Shown here: piece after piece, positions 665 to 61,430 of the stretch
Layout of the letters: the number at the start of each line of letters is the position of its first letter
Position numbering within the stretch: position 1 is the stretch's first letter
NCBI GenBank assembly: GCA_023374025.1
Contig: SIJG01000125.1
Location: 241,849 to 305,848 of the forward strand
Source: Heterodera schachtii
Lineage: Eukaryota; Nematoda; Chromadorea; Rhabditida; Heteroderidae
Direction of reading: 5' to 3'
Length of the DNA: 64,000 nucleotides
The notes under the pieces: model-generated
The model's input: the letters and a program-made list of their open reading frames with translations, nothing else
What the model was told of the DNA's origin: nothing
Database searches by the model: none
Translations under genes and position numbers: made by a program

Positions 665-672
665 GTTTAAGC
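665..672. repeat. 8 bp target-site duplication of the MULE (left copy)
   Basis: GTTTAAGC abuts the left arm and recurs exactly at 3321-3328 beyond the right arm. A ninth base on the outer side differs (T against C). Confidence 0.85.
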
Positions 673-799
673 GGCGACATGAAGTTTGGGCACCGGGAAG
701 TTTGGGCACCAGGAAGTTTGGGCACCAGAAGTTTGGGCACCGGGAAGTTTGGGCACCAGGAAGCAATTTTTAAAAAATCGAAAATATTTTTTAATTTAA
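673..799 (+). repeat. Left terminal inverted repeat of the MULE
   Basis: Five tandem copies of a 15-16 bp unit, GAAGTTTGGGCACC followed by GG, AG or A, run from about 681 to 760. They are followed by GAAGCAATTTTTAAAAAATC and an AT-rich tail that also matches the other arm. Such stacked motifs are probably binding sites for the transposase (inference). The inner end falls just before the transposase stop codon at 828. Confidence 0.9.
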
Positions 800-827
800 T
801 TTTGAAAAGTTGAATTTGTAAAAAAGA

Positions 828-2807
828 TTAATATGGTAAGTGATAGCTAATTGTGCGCAAATAATCGAGCGGCTCACGTTCAAGTCGCGTATTGAAGATA
901 GCCAACAAATTTTCGTCTTGCTGAATGTTCGCTGCTCGGCGATCCAAACCACGGCCCCTTATCCCTTGTATAGGCGCAGCCATATATTCATCAACCATAT
1001 TATGAAAAATATTATTTTCATCAATAATTGCTCTGATCACTCTGCTTAAACGAGGCGAATCTTCTCGAAATTTCGAATTCCACTGCAAATGCCAGGCTTC
1101 GATGCTGTTATTTGTCCTGCTTATGTCATTTTGGAGCCGATCAGAAACATTCCACAATCGAGGAGCAAATAAAGCACGGCGATGCGCAAGACCGGCATTG
1201 TTAATCCATCCCCTAATCCATTGGTCAACACCGCGTCCGTTGTTAATTTCAGGGTTTTGGTGCAATTGAATTGGTTGTTGTGCCATTATAAAATCACCAC
1301 CAAACCATGTCCGTACATAATATTGCATAAATTCTTAACAGATTTGCCCTTAATTTAAAACCCCTTTTCCCTACCAAAAATTTCGTCATTAGGCTGGAAG
1401 CTGGCTACTAAAACACAAAAGTAACTGTAAACCGATTCAATTGGCACAAAAGGAATTGCTTTAAATGACCTAGAAAAATAATTAATTACAGAAAGAAATT
1501 TTGTTTTACTTTAAACGCAATTTTTCATCTCTCTCATTTGCATTGCATTGTTCAATGCCAATGTCCCAAATTCGTCGCATGTTCGTTTGTTGTCGCAAAT
1601 TCCTGGAAATTGCTTCTCCAAAATGCCAGACGCATCCCGCTCGAATACAACGTGGGAAAATTGCACCAAAAGTCGTTAGCGCGGATGACTCAAAATCAGA
1701 AATCACGATATTGGGATCAAATTGAGGGACGGCTTGACGAATGGAACCAAAAAACGCATTGTAAACTGCTTGAGATTTTGCTGGGAGTATTCCAAAGACA
1801 GCAGGAATAGCACACCTATTTTAAAAATATTATAAAACAATTATTCTGTATTTTTTACCGATCAATTATAACTGCAAGGGTATATAATTGGTTAAATCCC
1901 CTCGGGACTTTGTCAAATGTGCCATCAATTGACACCTCATTGGCATTTCTCAGCATTTGCTCTCCAAAGTTTGACATAATCACCAACATTTTTTGTCCAC
2001 CGATGTTTTCATTGAAAATAAGCCCAAATTCTTGAAGATAAGCTGGTATTTGTATAGCACGCGGATCTGATACGGTAATAAGATAAGAAAAATAGATACG
2101 ATAGTGTACTCAATTAACTACCATCCAAATCGAGTCCTTCATCTCCTTGGAGCCGTCGGGCATTGACCTTGTGCCAGTTAAAGGCACGAACCATTGCCGA
2201 AGATGAGGGGGTCCCAGATTCGACGGCCACCCGTACACCAACAGGGATTGAAGATCTCACTTCAGCAACAATATCCCTCGTCCTCATCGGATTGGCCTGC
2301 CTTGCTTCCTGCCTCAATCTGTCTTCAGCATCTCGTACCTGCATTAAAATATTATCAAAAGTAATTAGTTCTACCGTATTTATTAAAAATTATAGTATAC
2401 TGTCATTTAAATTACAGTACCATAATATTCCCTGTTCTTGGCGGGTGATTATGATTTAGATTATTATAATGCCCCATTTTGAAGCGTTTCCCCTGTTCAT
2501 TTTGTTGCCAAATGCGTGAAACAGTAATTCTGGCAGGGCAATATGGACACTTTATTTTACAGCGCCAAAATTCGTGCATATCATTAGACTAAAAAAATAT
2601 GAATTTTCTCGGTAAATTTCAATATTTGAATACTTTCGAGGTTTTATCGAACGCATATTCAAAACCATTGTGCGTTAAAAGCGATTTTCCTTCCTGGCCA
2701 TGGCGTTTTGAAACAATTTCCAAAAAATTTATGTGCTGAGGGGCCCCTTCTGCTGCCCCTTCAGATGAATCGCTTGACACAAATTCTCCATCCTCGAGGA
2801 GTGCCAT
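828..2807 (-). CDS. MULE transposase, seven exons, FLYWCH zinc finger plus DDE domain
   Basis: This gene encodes the enzyme expected to cut and rejoin the element's ends. Exons on the minus strand: 2634-2807, 2421-2588, 2122-2338, 1859-2066, 1510-1815, 1375-1469 and 828-1333. Every intron (40-82 bp) starts GT and ends AG. Joined length is 1674 nt, exactly 558 codons with one terminal stop, so the frame survives six splices. Residues 46-106 form a FLYWCH zinc finger split by intron 1: aromatic F49/Y51/F53, WRC at 66-68, C72 and C75, H104 and H106. The MULE catalytic core follows: first Asp D234 in SIDGTFDKVP, second Asp D296 in VISDFESSA, the GCVWH motif with C317 and H320, and catalytic Glu E468 in RTNNSIEAWH. 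At 557 residues the length is normal for the family. The start at 2807 was chosen because it begins a compact acidic N-terminus just before the finger; an in-frame upstream ATG at 2927 would add a hydrophobic leader that looks like untranslated sequence. No stop or frameshift was found. The exon model is by eye. Confidence 0.9.
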
Positions 2808-3202
2808 TGTATTAGGCACGTTAAGCTGCTTCCGCTCGACGATGGAAGAAAATTTACAATTAAAAACCGAAATTTTTTGGTAATTAAACACAAAAACAGA
2901 AAAAAAATATAATGGACAACTTCCCATCTTAAGTTATTTATGAAAATATTTTTATTCAATTCATCCTTTGTATTTATGTTTATGTAAACAGCAGATGTGC
3001 AGACGAAAGATAACGATCTCAAAAAGTTGACAAAATGTTGGCCAATTCAATTTATTTTATTAATATTAATCTCACATTATTTAGTAATAATGAAAAGAAA
3101 ATACATGCTAATAATTTAGTCATTTACATTTTATTAATTAATTTTTTCATTTAGTTTTAATTTATTTTTTATTTTATATAGAAACATAATTAACAATGAT
3201 AA

Positions 3203-3320
3203 TATTTAAATTAAGAAAAATATTTTCGATTTTTTAAAAAATTGCTTCCTGGTGCCCAAACTTCCCGGTGCCCAAACTTCCCGGTGCCCAAACTTCCCGG
3301 TGCCCAAACTTCCGCCCCCC
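3203..3320 (-). repeat. Right terminal inverted repeat of the MULE
   Basis: This is the reverse complement of the left arm, with four copies of the GAAGTTTGGGCACCGG unit against five on the left. The copies here are more uniform (three end GG, one AG). About 395 bp separate the inner edge from the transposase start codon, so any promoter would lie in that gap or in the arm itself. Confidence 0.9.
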
Positions 3321-3328
3321 GTTTAAGC
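3321..3328. repeat. 8 bp target-site duplication of the MULE (right copy)
   Basis: GTTTAAGC, identical to 665-672, immediately outside the right arm. Confidence 0.85.
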
Positions 3329-9600: not shown

Positions 9601-11350
9601 TTAAAAGTATTTGAGAGCTTGTTTTAAAAAATGAAGATTTTTATTAAAAGTTTTGGATTTAATAAAAATATTTGCGAACTAAAATATGCACAGTTAAATT
9701 TGCGAAATTCCGGTATTCACAGACATATTCGAAATAAATTAGGGCAGAATGCTCCCTGTGCTACACTTGTTAGCTCCAGTGGAGTCATTGTCCATAAAAA
9801 AGCGGATAAATGCAATTTATTCGGCACAATTTTCCAAAAGGCTTTCCAGAAAAAGAATTTTACAATATGCAATGAACCTATTTCTAATTCAGTCTATTTT
9901 TCGGATTTCAACTTTGATATTATTTCTGTTTGTTCACTTTTGAAAATGTTGCCACCCAGAAATTCAACTTCTCCCGATGGTATTCCATACATTCTTTATA
10001 AAAAAGCGCTGAATCAATTGCCCCAGTAATAACGGAATTATTCCGTATTATATTAGATAGCGGCCAAATACCATCCATATGGAAAGAATCTTTTATTATT
10101 CCACTTTATAAAAAGGGCGAAAGAACAAATCCGGAAAATTACCGCCCCGTTTCATTAACATGTACTTTATGTCGGATATTTGAGAAAATATTAGCAAAGC
10201 AATTAGTTGAATTTCTTAATAAAAAGAATTACTTCTCAGAACATCAGTATGGGTTTATCAAATACAGATCAACTAACACCCAACTCCTCGTCTATTTGCA
10301 CGACATTTATTCTGCAATCCAAACCATGTTGATATAATATATATTGACTTTGCAAAAGCTTTTGATTCAGTTCCAATTGAATTGCTTTTAACAAAAATCA
10401 AAAATATAGGCATAGGTGGCAAAGTATTAAATTTTTTAGCTAATTTTTTAAGGGGAAGATCATTTAGTGTTAAAATTGATAACGCATTTTCGAAAAGGTT
10501 TGAGAGCTTTACCGGAGTACCACAAGGAAGTGTTCTAAGCCCTATCTTATTTCTAATTTTTATTAACGACTTACCGGAATTTCTACCGAAAAATGTCAGC
10601 ATTAAATTATATGCTGACGATGTGAAACTTTATATTAGGCATAGGAATAATCATATACGGGAAAAATTAGAAGAATCGCTTCTTTTACTTGAAAAATGGA
10701 CAGAGCTTAACGGGCTCGAAATTTCGGCTGAAAAATGTTCAGCATTTTACATAGGAAAAAATAATCAGAAACAAAGTTATTCGTTGATGAGAAAAATTAT
10801 CCCGGAAAAAGAGTTCGTCAAAGACCTCGGGATTTTGATTGATTTAAGACTTACATTTGCGAAACACATTGAAAAAATAATTAAAAAATCTTACTTTGTT
10901 ATTTAGAAATAAGGAGAACTGCTACAGACTTAGTCATGGTCCAAAAAATTCTAAGAGGGTATACACACCTTAAGCAAATGAACTATTTTACAATAACAAA
11001 CCGAAACAATAGGAAACCCCTTTTGCTTCGGCAAAAGAAATATATTTCTAAAACAAAAAATAACTTTTTTAATAGAACTATATCTATTTGGAATAAACTG
11101 CCTAAAGAGGCAATGCAAATTCAGAAATATAAGATTTTCAGAAACTATCTCCTAGAAACACTAAATTCATAATGCTGTTGTTGCTGCCTTAAACATTGGG
11201 TTCTTTTTGCATTTGATTGATTTATTTTCAATATATATTTTGTACCATCCTGGTAACTTTATTTTATTTTATTTCTTTTGCTTTTATTTTTATTTTTTAT
11301 TTTTTTTAATTTGCACTAAAACTTAAAAAAAATTTATGAATGAATGAATC
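9601..11350 (+). pseudogene. 5'-truncated, frameshifted non-LTR retrotransposon (CR1/Jockey-like LINE)
   Basis: Remains of the reverse transcriptase ORF of a LINE. Coding runs through three frames: 9631-10026, about 10020-10315, 10322-10905, then 10908-11172. The first part matches the linker between endonuclease and polymerase and ends with a SPDGIPYILYKKAL block. The second carries ENYRPVSLT and QYGFIKYRST. The third carries IIYIDFAKAFDSVP (first catalytic Asp), GVPQGSVLSPILFLIF and the catalytic YADDVKLY box. The last is the C-terminal RRTATDLVMVQKIL and FNRTISIWNKLPKEA region typical of CR1-like elements. At least two frameshifts exist, and a sizeable deletion at about 10890-10910 joins the thumb region directly to the C-terminus. 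The endonuclease is absent, as expected for 5' truncation. The copy cannot be active. The clade is inferred from motif style only. Confidence 0.88.
11173..11350 (+). other. Probable LINE 3' untranslated tail
   Basis: A T-rich then A-rich stretch follows the last LINE codon and ends in ATGAATGAATGAATC. Short tandem repeats of this kind are usual at the 3' end of CR1-like elements. The exact insertion boundary could not be fixed because no target duplication was found. Confidence 0.4.
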
Positions 11351-15680: not shown

Positions 15681-15685
15681 GGCTA

Positions 15686-16152
15686 CCCGACATTTGAGGA
15701 CTTTACATTTGAGGACCCGACATTAGGGGATCCCGACTTTTGAGGACCCGACATTTGAGGATCCCGACATTTGAGGACACGACTTTTGAGGACCCAACAT
15801 TTAAACGGGAGCAAAGGTGACCAAAAGTCTTCAAAGACAGCCGAATAATTCCAATCTTTCTTCTCCATGTACAGCTTATAGCATTAGGATGCCAAGGTCT
15901 GCCTTTGAATTTTCGTAATTGTCTAACACGTTGCCTAACACGAAGTTCAAAGGGAAAATCTTGTAAAAGCTTATCATAAATGCTGAAAGATTTTTTTTTG
16001 AAAATGTATATGCCCCCAAATGTCGGGTCCTCAAAAGTCGTGTCCTCAAATGTCGGGTCCTCAAAAGTCGTGTCCTCAAATGTCGGGATCCTCAAATGTC
16101 GGGATCCTCAAATGTCGGGTCCTCAAATGTCGGGATATCCTCAAAAGTCGGG
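15686..16152. mobile_element. Foldback element A: inverted stacks of a GAGGACCCGACATTT motif
   Basis: The left arm (15686-15802) and right arm (16018-16152) are inverted copies built from a 14-16 bp unit. The unit reads CCCGACATTTGAGGA or CCCGACTTTTGAGGA on the left and its complement on the right. The arms enclose about 215 bp. The design matches the MULE at 0.67-3.32 kb, with motif-stack inverted repeats, but the motif is unrelated and there is no transposase. I could not find a flanking target duplication, so exact ends are uncertain. The ORF of 130 codons on the minus strand is largely the repeat read through. Confidence 0.75.
15803..16017 (-). other. Coding-like filler inside foldback element A
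   Basis: The 215 bp core has more balanced base use than the flanks. It reads on the minus strand as FELRVRQRVRQLRKFKGRPW and on, and in an overlapping frame as MEKKDWNYSAVFEDFWSPLL. I do not recognise either peptide. Non-autonomous MULEs sometimes capture host exons, so this could be a captured gene piece, but that is inference. Confidence 0.3.
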
Positions 16153-44827: not shown

Positions 44828-44836
44828 GTCCCAACC

Positions 44837-45819
44837 GGTGTGCATACATTTCGCCAACTTGACATCTCGCCAACTGACATCTCGCCAACTGACATTTCGC
44901 CAACTCAGCCAAAAACATTCATTTCGCCAACTCACCTAAAAACATTCATTTCGCCAACTTAGCCAAAAACATTTATTTTGCCAACTCAGCCAAAATCCGA
45001 CATTTGCCAACTGACATCTCGCCAACTTTGCCATTTCTTTTTTTTATGTCAAATTTAAGAATTCTTTATCGATTGGTGTAAACTATTTTTTTTAAAAACC
45101 AAAACGAAAAAGTTTCTTCAAAAAATTTTTTAATTTGAAAAATTTTTCGATTATGTACCAGAAATGAGTTTGTATATAGGCGGGGAGTGACGAACAAGCA
45201 AGGGTCTTGGAGAAAGGGCACACCTTCAGACTCTTGCGGTTCTGATGAGCTATCAAGCATCTTTATAGCTTAAATTTAAATTGAGTTATGAATTCCAGGC
45301 GAATTCGAAAATTTTGACTTTTTTTGCCCTGATTTTCAGAATCCTGCTTAGGGGTACGCAGGGAATCAGGGGGGATTTTGACCGAAATAGCAAAACCTGA
45401 CACGTTAAGAATTATGATTACAACTATTAAGATCACCTAAGTTTGAATTAGCACGGTTTAGAATGCCGGACTCAAGATTGGTACTTGTGATTTTTGAAAA
45501 AGCTTTTGATACTTTATTTATTTTTAAAGATTTCTTTGCTTTGATGCACTTTTTATGTTATTTAGTATCATTAGACAGTTCAAAAATCAATTTAAGACTA
45601 GTTGGCGAAATAATTGGCGAAACGTCAGATTTTGGCTGAGGTGGCGAAATGAATGTTTTTGGCTGAGTGGGCGAAATGAATGTTGGCGAGATGTCAGTTG
45701 GCCAGATGTCAAGTTGGCGAAATGTCAGTTGGCGAAATGTCAGATTTTGGCTGAGTTGGCGAAATGAATGTTTTTGGGTTAGTTGGCGAAATGTCAAGTT
45801 GGCGAAATGTAGTCGTGCC
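44837..45819. mobile_element. Foldback element B: inverted stacks of a TTTCGCCAACT motif
   Basis: A 983 bp element flanked by the exact nonamer GTCCCAACC (44828-44836 and 45820-45828), the usual target-duplication size of MULEs. The left arm (44837-45035) repeats CATTTCGCCAACTCAGCC, GACATCTCGCCAACT and similar units. The right arm (45598-45819) carries their complements, GGCGAAATGTCAGTT and GGCTGAGTTGGCGAAATGAA. The outer ends both start GG and converge on ACATTTCGCC. The 560 bp core has no transposase. ORFs crossing the arms (70 and 79 codons) are repeat read-through. Confidence 0.88.
45036..45597. other. Core of foldback element B
   Basis: This part is less AT-rich than the flanks. It holds a 64-codon ORF on the minus strand (45066-45260) that starts with an acidic, serine-rich stretch (MLDSSSEPQESEGV). 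A GC-richer patch lies at 45290-45480. I recognise no domain. The ORF could be a remnant of a transposase N-terminus or a captured exon, but neither is supported. Confidence 0.3.
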
Positions 45820-45828
45820 GTCCCAACC

Positions 45829-61030: not shown

Positions 61031-61070
61031 AAATTTTTGGGTGGGGGAGCCGCGGGGGGGGGGGGGGGGG

Positions 61071-61430
61071 GTTGCGCGAAGCGCCTTCCGTAAAAAGGGG
61101 GGGGGGGGGGGGGGGGGGGAGGGGGGCCGCTGGGGGGGGGGGTGGCGGGTGGCGCGAAGCACTTCCGTAAAAAGGGGGGGGGGGCGGGGGGGGGGTGGGG
61201 GTGGCGCGAAGCGCCCTCCGTAAAGCGGGCGGGGGGGGGGTGGGTGGGGGCCGCGGGGGGGGGGAGAGGGGGGCCGCGGGGGGGGGGGGGGGGGTGGCGG
61301 GTGGCGCGAAGCGCCTTCCGTAAAGCGGGCGGGGGGGGGGGGGGGTGGGGTGGCGCGAAGCGCACTCCGTTAAGGGGGGAGGTGCGGTAGGCGGGGTGCG
61401 GGCGGGGGGGGGGAGGGGGGGTGGCGCGCG
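61071..61430 (+). repeat. Irregular tandem repeat of GCGAAGC hairpins and G runs
   Basis: Five copies of a core close to GGCGCGAAGCGCCTTCCGTA start at 61072, 61151, 61203, 61303 and 61352, with a degenerate sixth at 61422. They are separated by runs of up to about 20 G. Each core can fold as GGCGC-GAA-GCGCC, and the heptamer GCGAAGC is a known unusually stable DNA mini-hairpin. The G runs could form quadruplexes. Confidence 0.8.

What the first reader, a model, noticed from the sequence alone, without database searches (positions are those of the whole stretch)
665..3328. Potentially active MULE with complete seven-exon transposase and motif-stack ends
Seen: exact 8 bp duplication, long inverted repeats built from 16 bp units, and a seven-exon frame of exactly 558 codons with GT-AG introns, a FLYWCH finger and all three catalytic residues (D234, D296, E468). 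Known: MULE transposases use a DDE domain, and Drosophila FB/NOF elements pair a MULE protein with tandem-repeat ends. Inference: this is a recently inserted, possibly autonomous copy whose stacked ends provide many binding sites for the FLYWCH finger. I cannot tell whether the family has been described.
Basis: partly seen in the sequence, partly recalled or inferred. Interest (0 to 1): 0.75.

Follow-up and report, generated by a model that had tools for sequence, protein, structure and literature searches.

The report
Stacked-end MULE transposon in a nematode
This is a complete-looking cut-and-paste jumping gene of a nematode whose ends are stacks of short repeated sites; it is of a kind already described in root-knot nematodes and mosquitoes, and its short relatives seem to have moved recently and to carry two unlike end types.

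Summary
Window 673-3320 is a MULE DNA transposon between exact 8-bp duplications (GTTTAAGC), with inverted stacks of five and four copies of a 15/16-bp unit. A seven-exon minus-strand frame gives 557 aa with FLYWCH and MULE domains and D234, D296, E468. The host is a nematode, most likely Heterodera schachtii (inferred). It is the only copy found there with both ends and exon 1; four other long pieces are truncated. Many short relatives share its caps: 34 of 39 two-ended elements (this one included) have exact 8-bp duplications, and two identical 697-bp ones at different sites suggest recent movement. The plan is already described (Tm1 of Meloidogyne, Muta of Aedes), so this is a new family of a known kind. 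Activity, splicing and FLYWCH binding are untested. Kb-long 16-mer arrays elsewhere suggest spill-over into satellite DNA.

The parts
665..672 (.). left target-site duplication GTTTAAGC
673..680 (+). end cap A1, GGCGACAT
   Evidence: same cap at the outer edge of relatives
681..763 (+). left stack, 5 units of 16/15 bp, GAAGTTTGGGCACCRG
767..791 (+). inner subterminal repeat, perfect inverted copy at 3216-3240
828..1333 (-). exon 7 (W450, catalytic E468, stop)
1375..1469 (-). exon 6
1510..1815 (-). exon 5 (catalytic D296, H320)
1859..2066 (-). exon 4 (catalytic D234)
2122..2338 (-). exon 3
2421..2588 (-). exon 2 (FLYWCH C68, C75, H104, H106)
2634..2807 (-). exon 1 (predicted start ATG; start of FLYWCH domain)
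3216..3240 (-). inner subterminal repeat, partner of 767-791
3245..3312 (-). right stack, 4 full units plus a partial inner one, inverted
3313..3320 (-). end cap A2, read outward-in GGGGGGCG
   Evidence: same cap in relatives
3321..3328 (.). right target-site duplication GTTTAAGC

Best explanation
A cut-and-paste MULE DNA transposon of a nematode. Inferred working: the spliced 557-aa transposase binds the repeated 15/16-bp units through its FLYWCH finger. Several molecules line up on each stack, pair one A1-capped end with one A2-capped end, cut at the outer edge of the caps with the D-D-E core, and insert with an 8-bp stagger, which gives the 8-bp duplication. The same machinery would serve the short elements that share caps and units. 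Shown here: anatomy, duplications, intact frame, catalytic spacing, a family with very young copies, one-of-each-cap pairing in every typed locus, and the same plan in sister loci. Inferred: splicing, DNA binding, synapsis, and that this copy (rather than another, unseen one) drives the short elements. The confidence below is for the identity and this way of working; that this very copy is active today is about even.
For: Frame, domains and duplication. Residues shown essential or important in active Muta1 (D214, D283, H307, W401, E419; PMC5225508, passages read) have counterparts by spacing in D234, D296, H320, W450, E468: D2-H 24 and W-E 18 in both, while D1-D2 is 62 against 69 and D2-E 172 against 136 (matched by spacing, not by an alignment with Muta1). 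Exact 8-bp duplications at 34 of 39 two-ended elements, this one included. The identical pair L034/L039, 697 bp each, has different duplications AAAAGCCA and CCGAGGAT. One A1 and one A2 in 39 of 39 typed loci, 8 of 47 loci not typed at one end. The nearest partial copy (C112, 99.2%) differs by 7 synonymous and 3 replacing changes in 10 coding changes, against 21.5% synonymous expected if all single changes are equally likely, p=0.0014 (a transition bias would raise the expectation). Sister loci with 8-bp GG-N6 caps, 14-16-bp units and 8-9-bp duplications. A paralogous stretch on contig C225 runs across the insertion point without the element.
Against: Only one copy found has both ends and exon 1 (both searches score only the best candidates, so more copies are not excluded). 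An active autonomous element often has several near-identical full copies. The four other long pieces are truncated: C74 and C50 carry stops and coding gaps, and C112 has a 1-base coding gap. The window's unit order (GAeG / GGG) differs from the commonest order in the short elements (GAaG, 40 of 78 ends) and their inner sequence differs, so the short elements may depend on another, unseen autonomous copy. The C74 copy gives little sign of constraint (11 synonymous of 30, p=0.04, with stops). The identity of L034 and L039 could also come from gene conversion. No transcript, splice or binding evidence.
Confidence: 0.85

Rival explanations
1. The copy is an intact but silent relic: a single surviving transposase copy that no longer moves, while the short elements were mobilised by a different, lost or unassembled autonomous element with the same caps.
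For: Single two-ended copy found; unit order and inner ends of the short elements differ from the window element; Tm1-A in Meloidogyne is likewise single-copy and the authors judge Tm1 currently inactive (PMC3169594, parts 1-4 of 8 read).
Against: Uninterrupted 558-codon frame; identical short copies; caps identical to those of the short elements; mostly synonymous change against C112.
Confidence: 0.4
2. The transposase has been kept for a host role and the element no longer transposes.
For: Transposon-derived transcription factors are reported across animals, FLYWCH proteins among the words of these papers (PMC10027918 and PMC12265568, seen in search listings only); single copy with some constraint.
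Against: It still sits between intact ends with an exact duplication, and truncated copies lie elsewhere; a host gene does not need stacked inverted ends.
Confidence: 0.05
3. The stacked ends are ordinary satellite DNA into which a MULE happened to insert, not part of the element.
For: Arrays of the same unit longer than 2 kb exist alone, one of them ending in an assembly gap about 3.8 kb from this element.
Against: The duplications lie outside the stacks; dozens of other elements have the same cap-stack plan with their own duplications; sister loci have different unit letters at the same place.
Confidence: 0.02

Closest known systems
Tm1 (Tm1-A) of Meloidogyne incognita/javanica, PMC3169594 (parts 1-4 of 8 read)
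   Same: FLYWCH-MULE transposase predicted from 7 exons; 2593-bp element; unlike 7-bp outer motifs A1/A2 at the two ends; stacks of about 14-bp units; many short relatives; variable unit number
   Different: 496 aa instead of 557; caps CGGTTAA/CCTACCC and unit CGATTCAGTATCGC, which is not in this window beyond chance; duplications most often 9 bp (8-10 reported), here 8; the paper says Tm1-A lacks the last FLYWCH histidine, here C68, C75, H104, H106 are present
Muta1 and Muta5 of Aedes aegypti, PMC5225508 (passages read)
   Same: predicted 504- and 554-aa transposases, FLYWCH finger in 13 of the 14 Muta families, 8-9-bp duplications, long ends with a short terminal motif and subterminal tandem repeats (Muta1 12 bp plus 3-4 bp linkers; Muta5 nine copies of 15 bp, 8-bp terminal motif), hundreds of derivatives
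   Different: two or three exons; other sequences; Muta1 activity shown in yeast, none shown here
Phantom group of MULEs, PMC6446971 (passages read)
   Same: MULE domain with FLYWCH (or SWIM, or no) finger, 8-10-bp duplications, ends 18-613 bp or none, animal hosts
   Different: placement by tree could not be done here; the host list read there for Phantom names no nematode, and a Trichinella sequence is set apart
Tetris of Drosophila virilis, PMC4079207 (abstract and outline read)
   Same: foldback element whose internal tandem repeats also occur as kb-long satellite-like arrays
   Different: 220-bp unit, apparently nonautonomous
Galileo of Drosophila, PMC3688188 (abstract and outline read)
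   Same: tandem repeats within long ends found to hold multiple binding sites for the transposase's DNA-binding domain
   Different: P-element superfamily, THAP domain

Membership tests
MULE (Mutator-like) superfamily | MULE/DDE transposase domain | tested here: met
   Pfam PF10551 31 bits over cut-off 27.6; D-D-E with H and W at Muta1-like spacing
MULE (Mutator-like) superfamily | 8-11-bp target-site duplication | tested here: met
   8 bp exact here and in 34 of 39 elements of the family, this one included
MULE (Mutator-like) superfamily | terminal inverted repeats | tested here: met
   74 nt at 82%, 48 nt at 98%; the outermost 8 bp are not inverted copies of each other
Foldback-type ends (structural class) | tandem units inside inverted ends, varying in number | tested here: met
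   5 and 4 units here; 1-12 units per end, 46 of 78 ends with five
Tm1 family | motif C unit CGATTCAGTATCGC | tested here: not met
   2 loose matches in the window, 1.49 expected, none at the ends
Tm1 family | caps A1 CGGTTAA and A2 CCTACCC, mostly 9-bp duplication | tested here: not met
   caps GGCGACAT/GGGGGGCG, 8 bp, compared by eye with the paper's motifs
Tm1 family | protein similarity to Tm1-A transposase | not testable with these tools
   sequence of ADM16638.1 not at hand
Phantom group | FLYWCH finger plus MULE domain | tested here: met
Phantom group | placement inside the Phantom clade by phylogeny | not testable with these tools
   no reference set at hand; the protein search of the large database gave no hit at E <= 0.001
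FB/NOF (Rehavkus-like) | PHD finger of the transposase (Rehavkus row of the table in PMC6446971; that NOF belongs there is recalled) | tested here: not met
   Pfam scan at E <= 1 shows only MULE and FLYWCH

The most novel reading that the evidence does not exclude
The ends of these FLYWCH-MULEs are a two-part code. A quickly changing 14-16-bp unit, stacked at fixed spacing and register, is read by the FLYWCH finger and gives family specificity. Two unlike 8-bp GG-N6 caps, one needed at each end, enforce correct pairing of ends. Families of one genome diversify by changing the unit around a fixed core (TTTSGNCA in most), and surplus units escape into satellite DNA.
Probability: 0.3. Interest if true: 0.6.

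Novelty: new member of a known kind. Interest (0 to 1): 0.45.

Why it matters
It extends the stacked-end FLYWCH-MULE plan, known from root-knot nematodes and mosquitoes, to what is most likely a cyst nematode. It supplies a family with an intact transposase frame and young short copies. Because several families with different unit letters sit in one genome, the question of why foldback-type ends are stacks of repeats becomes directly testable: swap units between families, count the units needed, and test whether two like caps can pair.

Tried and rejected
Telomere idea: Meloidogyne telomeres consist of unusual repeats, and in M. hapla of a 16-mer (PMC12643312, PMC10844300, PMC10630426, passages read). 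The 66-bp Clade I motif gave no match here (the tool warns that an empty answer alone shows nothing), the published M. hapla 16-mer differs, and the two kb-long arrays fetched lie inside contigs (C125 at 236-239 kb of 394 kb; C156 at 205-207 kb of 278 kb), so a telomere role is not supported. Contig ends were not surveyed.

Another autonomous copy among the long two-ended elements: L017 (4444 bp) is a short element with a long reverse-transcriptase-like frame inside (recognised by eye from its motifs, no domain search made). L018 (3101 bp) and L019 (1564 bp) match the window element only at the ends, and their longest frames are 90 and 203 aa.

Protein search of the large database gave no hit at E <= 0.001, and no solved structure matched at E <= 1. 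A text search for the unit letters gave five papers with unrelated titles. Searches on Heterodera with Mutator/MITE terms and on Phantom/foldback/FLYWCH terms listed, by title and abstract start, no nematode family of this kind other than Tm1; this covers the held open-access library alone.

The fetched relatives were hand-picked from the places listed, whose lists were cut short, so the proportions are not from a random sample. The 39 elements (caps found by pattern, window included, of 48 loci) and the 39 loci (ends typed without asking for a combination, window not included, of 47) overlap but are not the same set. L027 and L054 share duplication and flanks and look like one duplicated locus; both are counted.

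Full report
What is there. The window lies in a 178.5-Mb genome of 356 contigs (C125:241849-305848). The element is 673-3320, between exact copies of GTTTAAGC. From the left it reads: cap GGCGACAT, five units of GAAGTTTGGGCACCRG (16 bp, one of 15), an AT-rich inner repeat, the gene on the minus strand, the inner repeat inverted, four inverted units, and a cap that read inward is GGGGGGCG. All 9 matches of the unit core in 64 kb are at these ends (0.05 expected).

The gene. Introns are 40-82 bp and 12-37% GC; the CDS is 42.5% GC, in a window of 23% GC. Pfam finds FLYWCH at 37-106 and MULE at 231-321, both above cut-off. Mutagenesis of the active mosquito element Muta1 abolished transposition when D214, D283 or E419 was changed to alanine and showed the importance of H307 and W401 (PMC5225508, passages read). 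Here H320 lies 24 residues after D296 and W450 lies 18 before E468, the same spacings as in Muta1, while the D-D and D-E distances differ (62 against 69; 172 against 136). This match is by spacing, since the Muta1 sequence was not at hand. The four likely FLYWCH metal ligands are C68, C75, H104 and H106.

Copies in the genome. The DNA search finds four other long pieces: C112 (window 665-2560, 99.2%), C74 (673-2601, 97.7%), C21 (673-1552, 99.3%) and C50 (715-1168, 94%); identities exclude gaps. In the protein search the first 56 residues at more than 50% identity appear only here. Both searches score only the best candidates (40 of 160 and 78 of 294), so further copies are not excluded. C112 differs by ten coding changes, seven of them synonymous (21.5% expected if all single changes are equally likely; p=0.0014), and has one 1-base coding gap; C74 and C50 carry stops and coding gaps. 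So this copy is structurally the best one found, and the coding sequence seems to have been under constraint in at least one lineage.

The short relatives. The 30-base double unit is found at 549 places (up to 3 mismatches; 0 for the reversed control). I fetched loci around listed places and examined 48 including the window; 39 had both caps by pattern, and 34 of these 39 have an exact 8-bp duplication. Of the other five, L045 has a 9-bp one and four have none that I could see. Of the 39, 35 are 586-749 bp. The median pairwise identity of these 35 is 89% (range 57-100%, the low values from L046, whose interior is turned), but L034 and L039 are identical over 697 bp with different duplications, which suggests recent movement. 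The commonest stack is five units in the order GAaG (40 of 78 ends; 14 of 39 elements at both ends); the window has GAeG and GGG.

One cap of each kind. Typing ends without asking for a combination, 39 of 47 loci had both ends typed and all 39 were A1/A2, none A1/A1 or A2/A2; 8 had one end missing or untypable. In L033 and L048 the inner sequence is the same at both ends yet the caps still differ, and in L046 the interior is turned round relative to the caps. This fits a need for one A1 and one A2 end. [quoted passage not shown] PMC3169594).

Sister families. The protein finds further MULE segments in the same genome at 23-51% identity. I looked at seven sister loci. Five have stacked ends: C9 (L083) caps GGTAACAT/GGTTCCCG, unit GTGATTTCGTCAGTGA, duplication ATATTTTT exact; C5 (L079) caps GGCGCTAT/GGTGGCAG, unit GTGATTTCGCCAGTGA, duplication 7 of 8; C25 (L082) caps GGCTCCCG/GGTGGCTG, units of 14-15 bp with TTTCGACA or TTTCGCCA, duplication GCATTTTT; C129 (L088) caps GGGAACAG/GGGTACAT, units of 14-15 bp with ACTCGCC, duplication GAATTGCTT (9 bp); C270 (L089) one end only, GGTGCTAT, unit with TTTCGTCA (caps and most duplications read by eye from these outputs). 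Their segments match the window protein at 23-48%. The other two (L081, L085) showed no such ends in the fetched stretch. Thus cap length, the leading GG and unit length stay while letters change, and in four of the five the core TTTSGNCA stays. L088 has FLYWCH and MULE domains in one uninterrupted frame. L079 lacks E468 in the aligned segments, so it looks broken there.

Empty site. The joined flanks match C225:96766-97185 at 75% across the junction without the element. The alignment is good on both sides, but the 8 bp themselves are not recognisable there, so it shows an unoccupied relative of the site, not a clean pre-insertion allele.

Host. The exact nematode SL1 leader is present (245 matches with up to 1 mismatch). 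Size, contig count and the length of contig 156 (277,847 bp; contigs seem numbered by falling length) fit the published H. schachtii assembly (about 179 Mb, 395 scaffolds, 90% on 154 scaffolds over 281,463 bp; PMC9582021 passages). This is an inference.

Against known systems. Stacked-end FLYWCH-MULEs are described: Tm1 (seven exons, unlike caps, 14-bp units, short relatives) and the Muta families (10 of 12 long-ended families with 9-15-bp subterminal repeats). This element is therefore a new family of a known kind. Its caps and unit fail the Tm1 sequence definition; membership in the Phantom clade was not tested. What is added is the one-of-each-cap rule seen in every typed locus, the constant plan with changing unit letters across families of one genome, and arrays of the same unit over 2 kb long outside the element (C125:236256-238741, cut by a gap, 123 cores; C156:204764-206855, 98 cores), for which Tetris is a precedent (PMC4079207, abstract).

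Noticed in passing
L009 3257-5742 (C125, about 3.8 kb left of the element) and L010 3765-5856 (C156): Satellite-like arrays of the same 16-mer, 2.5 kb and 2.1 kb. The first runs into a stretch of N that ends just before the window's first base; no cap at the edges that can be seen. The C156 array shows further periods of 31 and 63 bp.
   Followed up: partly
window 44837-45819: Another stacked-end foldback element: 15- and 27-bp units, many with TTTCGCCA, outer motifs GGTGTGCA and GGCACGAC, exact 9-bp duplication GTCCCAACC at 44828-44836 and 45820-45828.
   Followed up: partly
window 15685-16152: A third foldback-like structure with inverted stacks of a 15/16-bp unit ACCCGACATTTGAGG; no duplication looked for.
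   Followed up: partly
L088 (C129:218800-223200): Two head-to-tail copies of an intronless 504-codon FLYWCH-MULE frame, identical in translation, with 124-bp stacked ends, flanked by a 9-bp duplication and separated by a partial one.
   Followed up: partly
window 9628-11169: Reverse-transcriptase gene in pieces in different frames (RVT_1 E 4.4e-25 for 10277-10903; the piece at 9628 gave no family).
   Followed up: no
window 61039-61421: Very G-rich tandem repeat. The window has 96 G-quadruplex motif starts on the plus strand; the first 40 listed all lie at 61039-61179.
   Followed up: no
window 3282-3305 (minus strand): The A2-side stack contains four overlapping G-quadruplex motifs, the only ones on the minus strand of the window; the A1-side stack has none by the same rule.
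   Followed up: no
C2:1187265-1187366 and C56:956874-956993: The canonical nematode telomere repeat TTAGGC (four exact units) was found only at these two places; the C2 one is well inside its 4.78-Mb contig, the end of C56 was not looked at.
   Followed up: no
C9 and C30: SL1 genes occur in tandem at spacings of about 577 and 613 bp.
   Followed up: no
L017 (C43): A short stacked-end element interrupted by a retroelement-like insert with a 761-codon uninterrupted frame (judged by eye).
   Followed up: no
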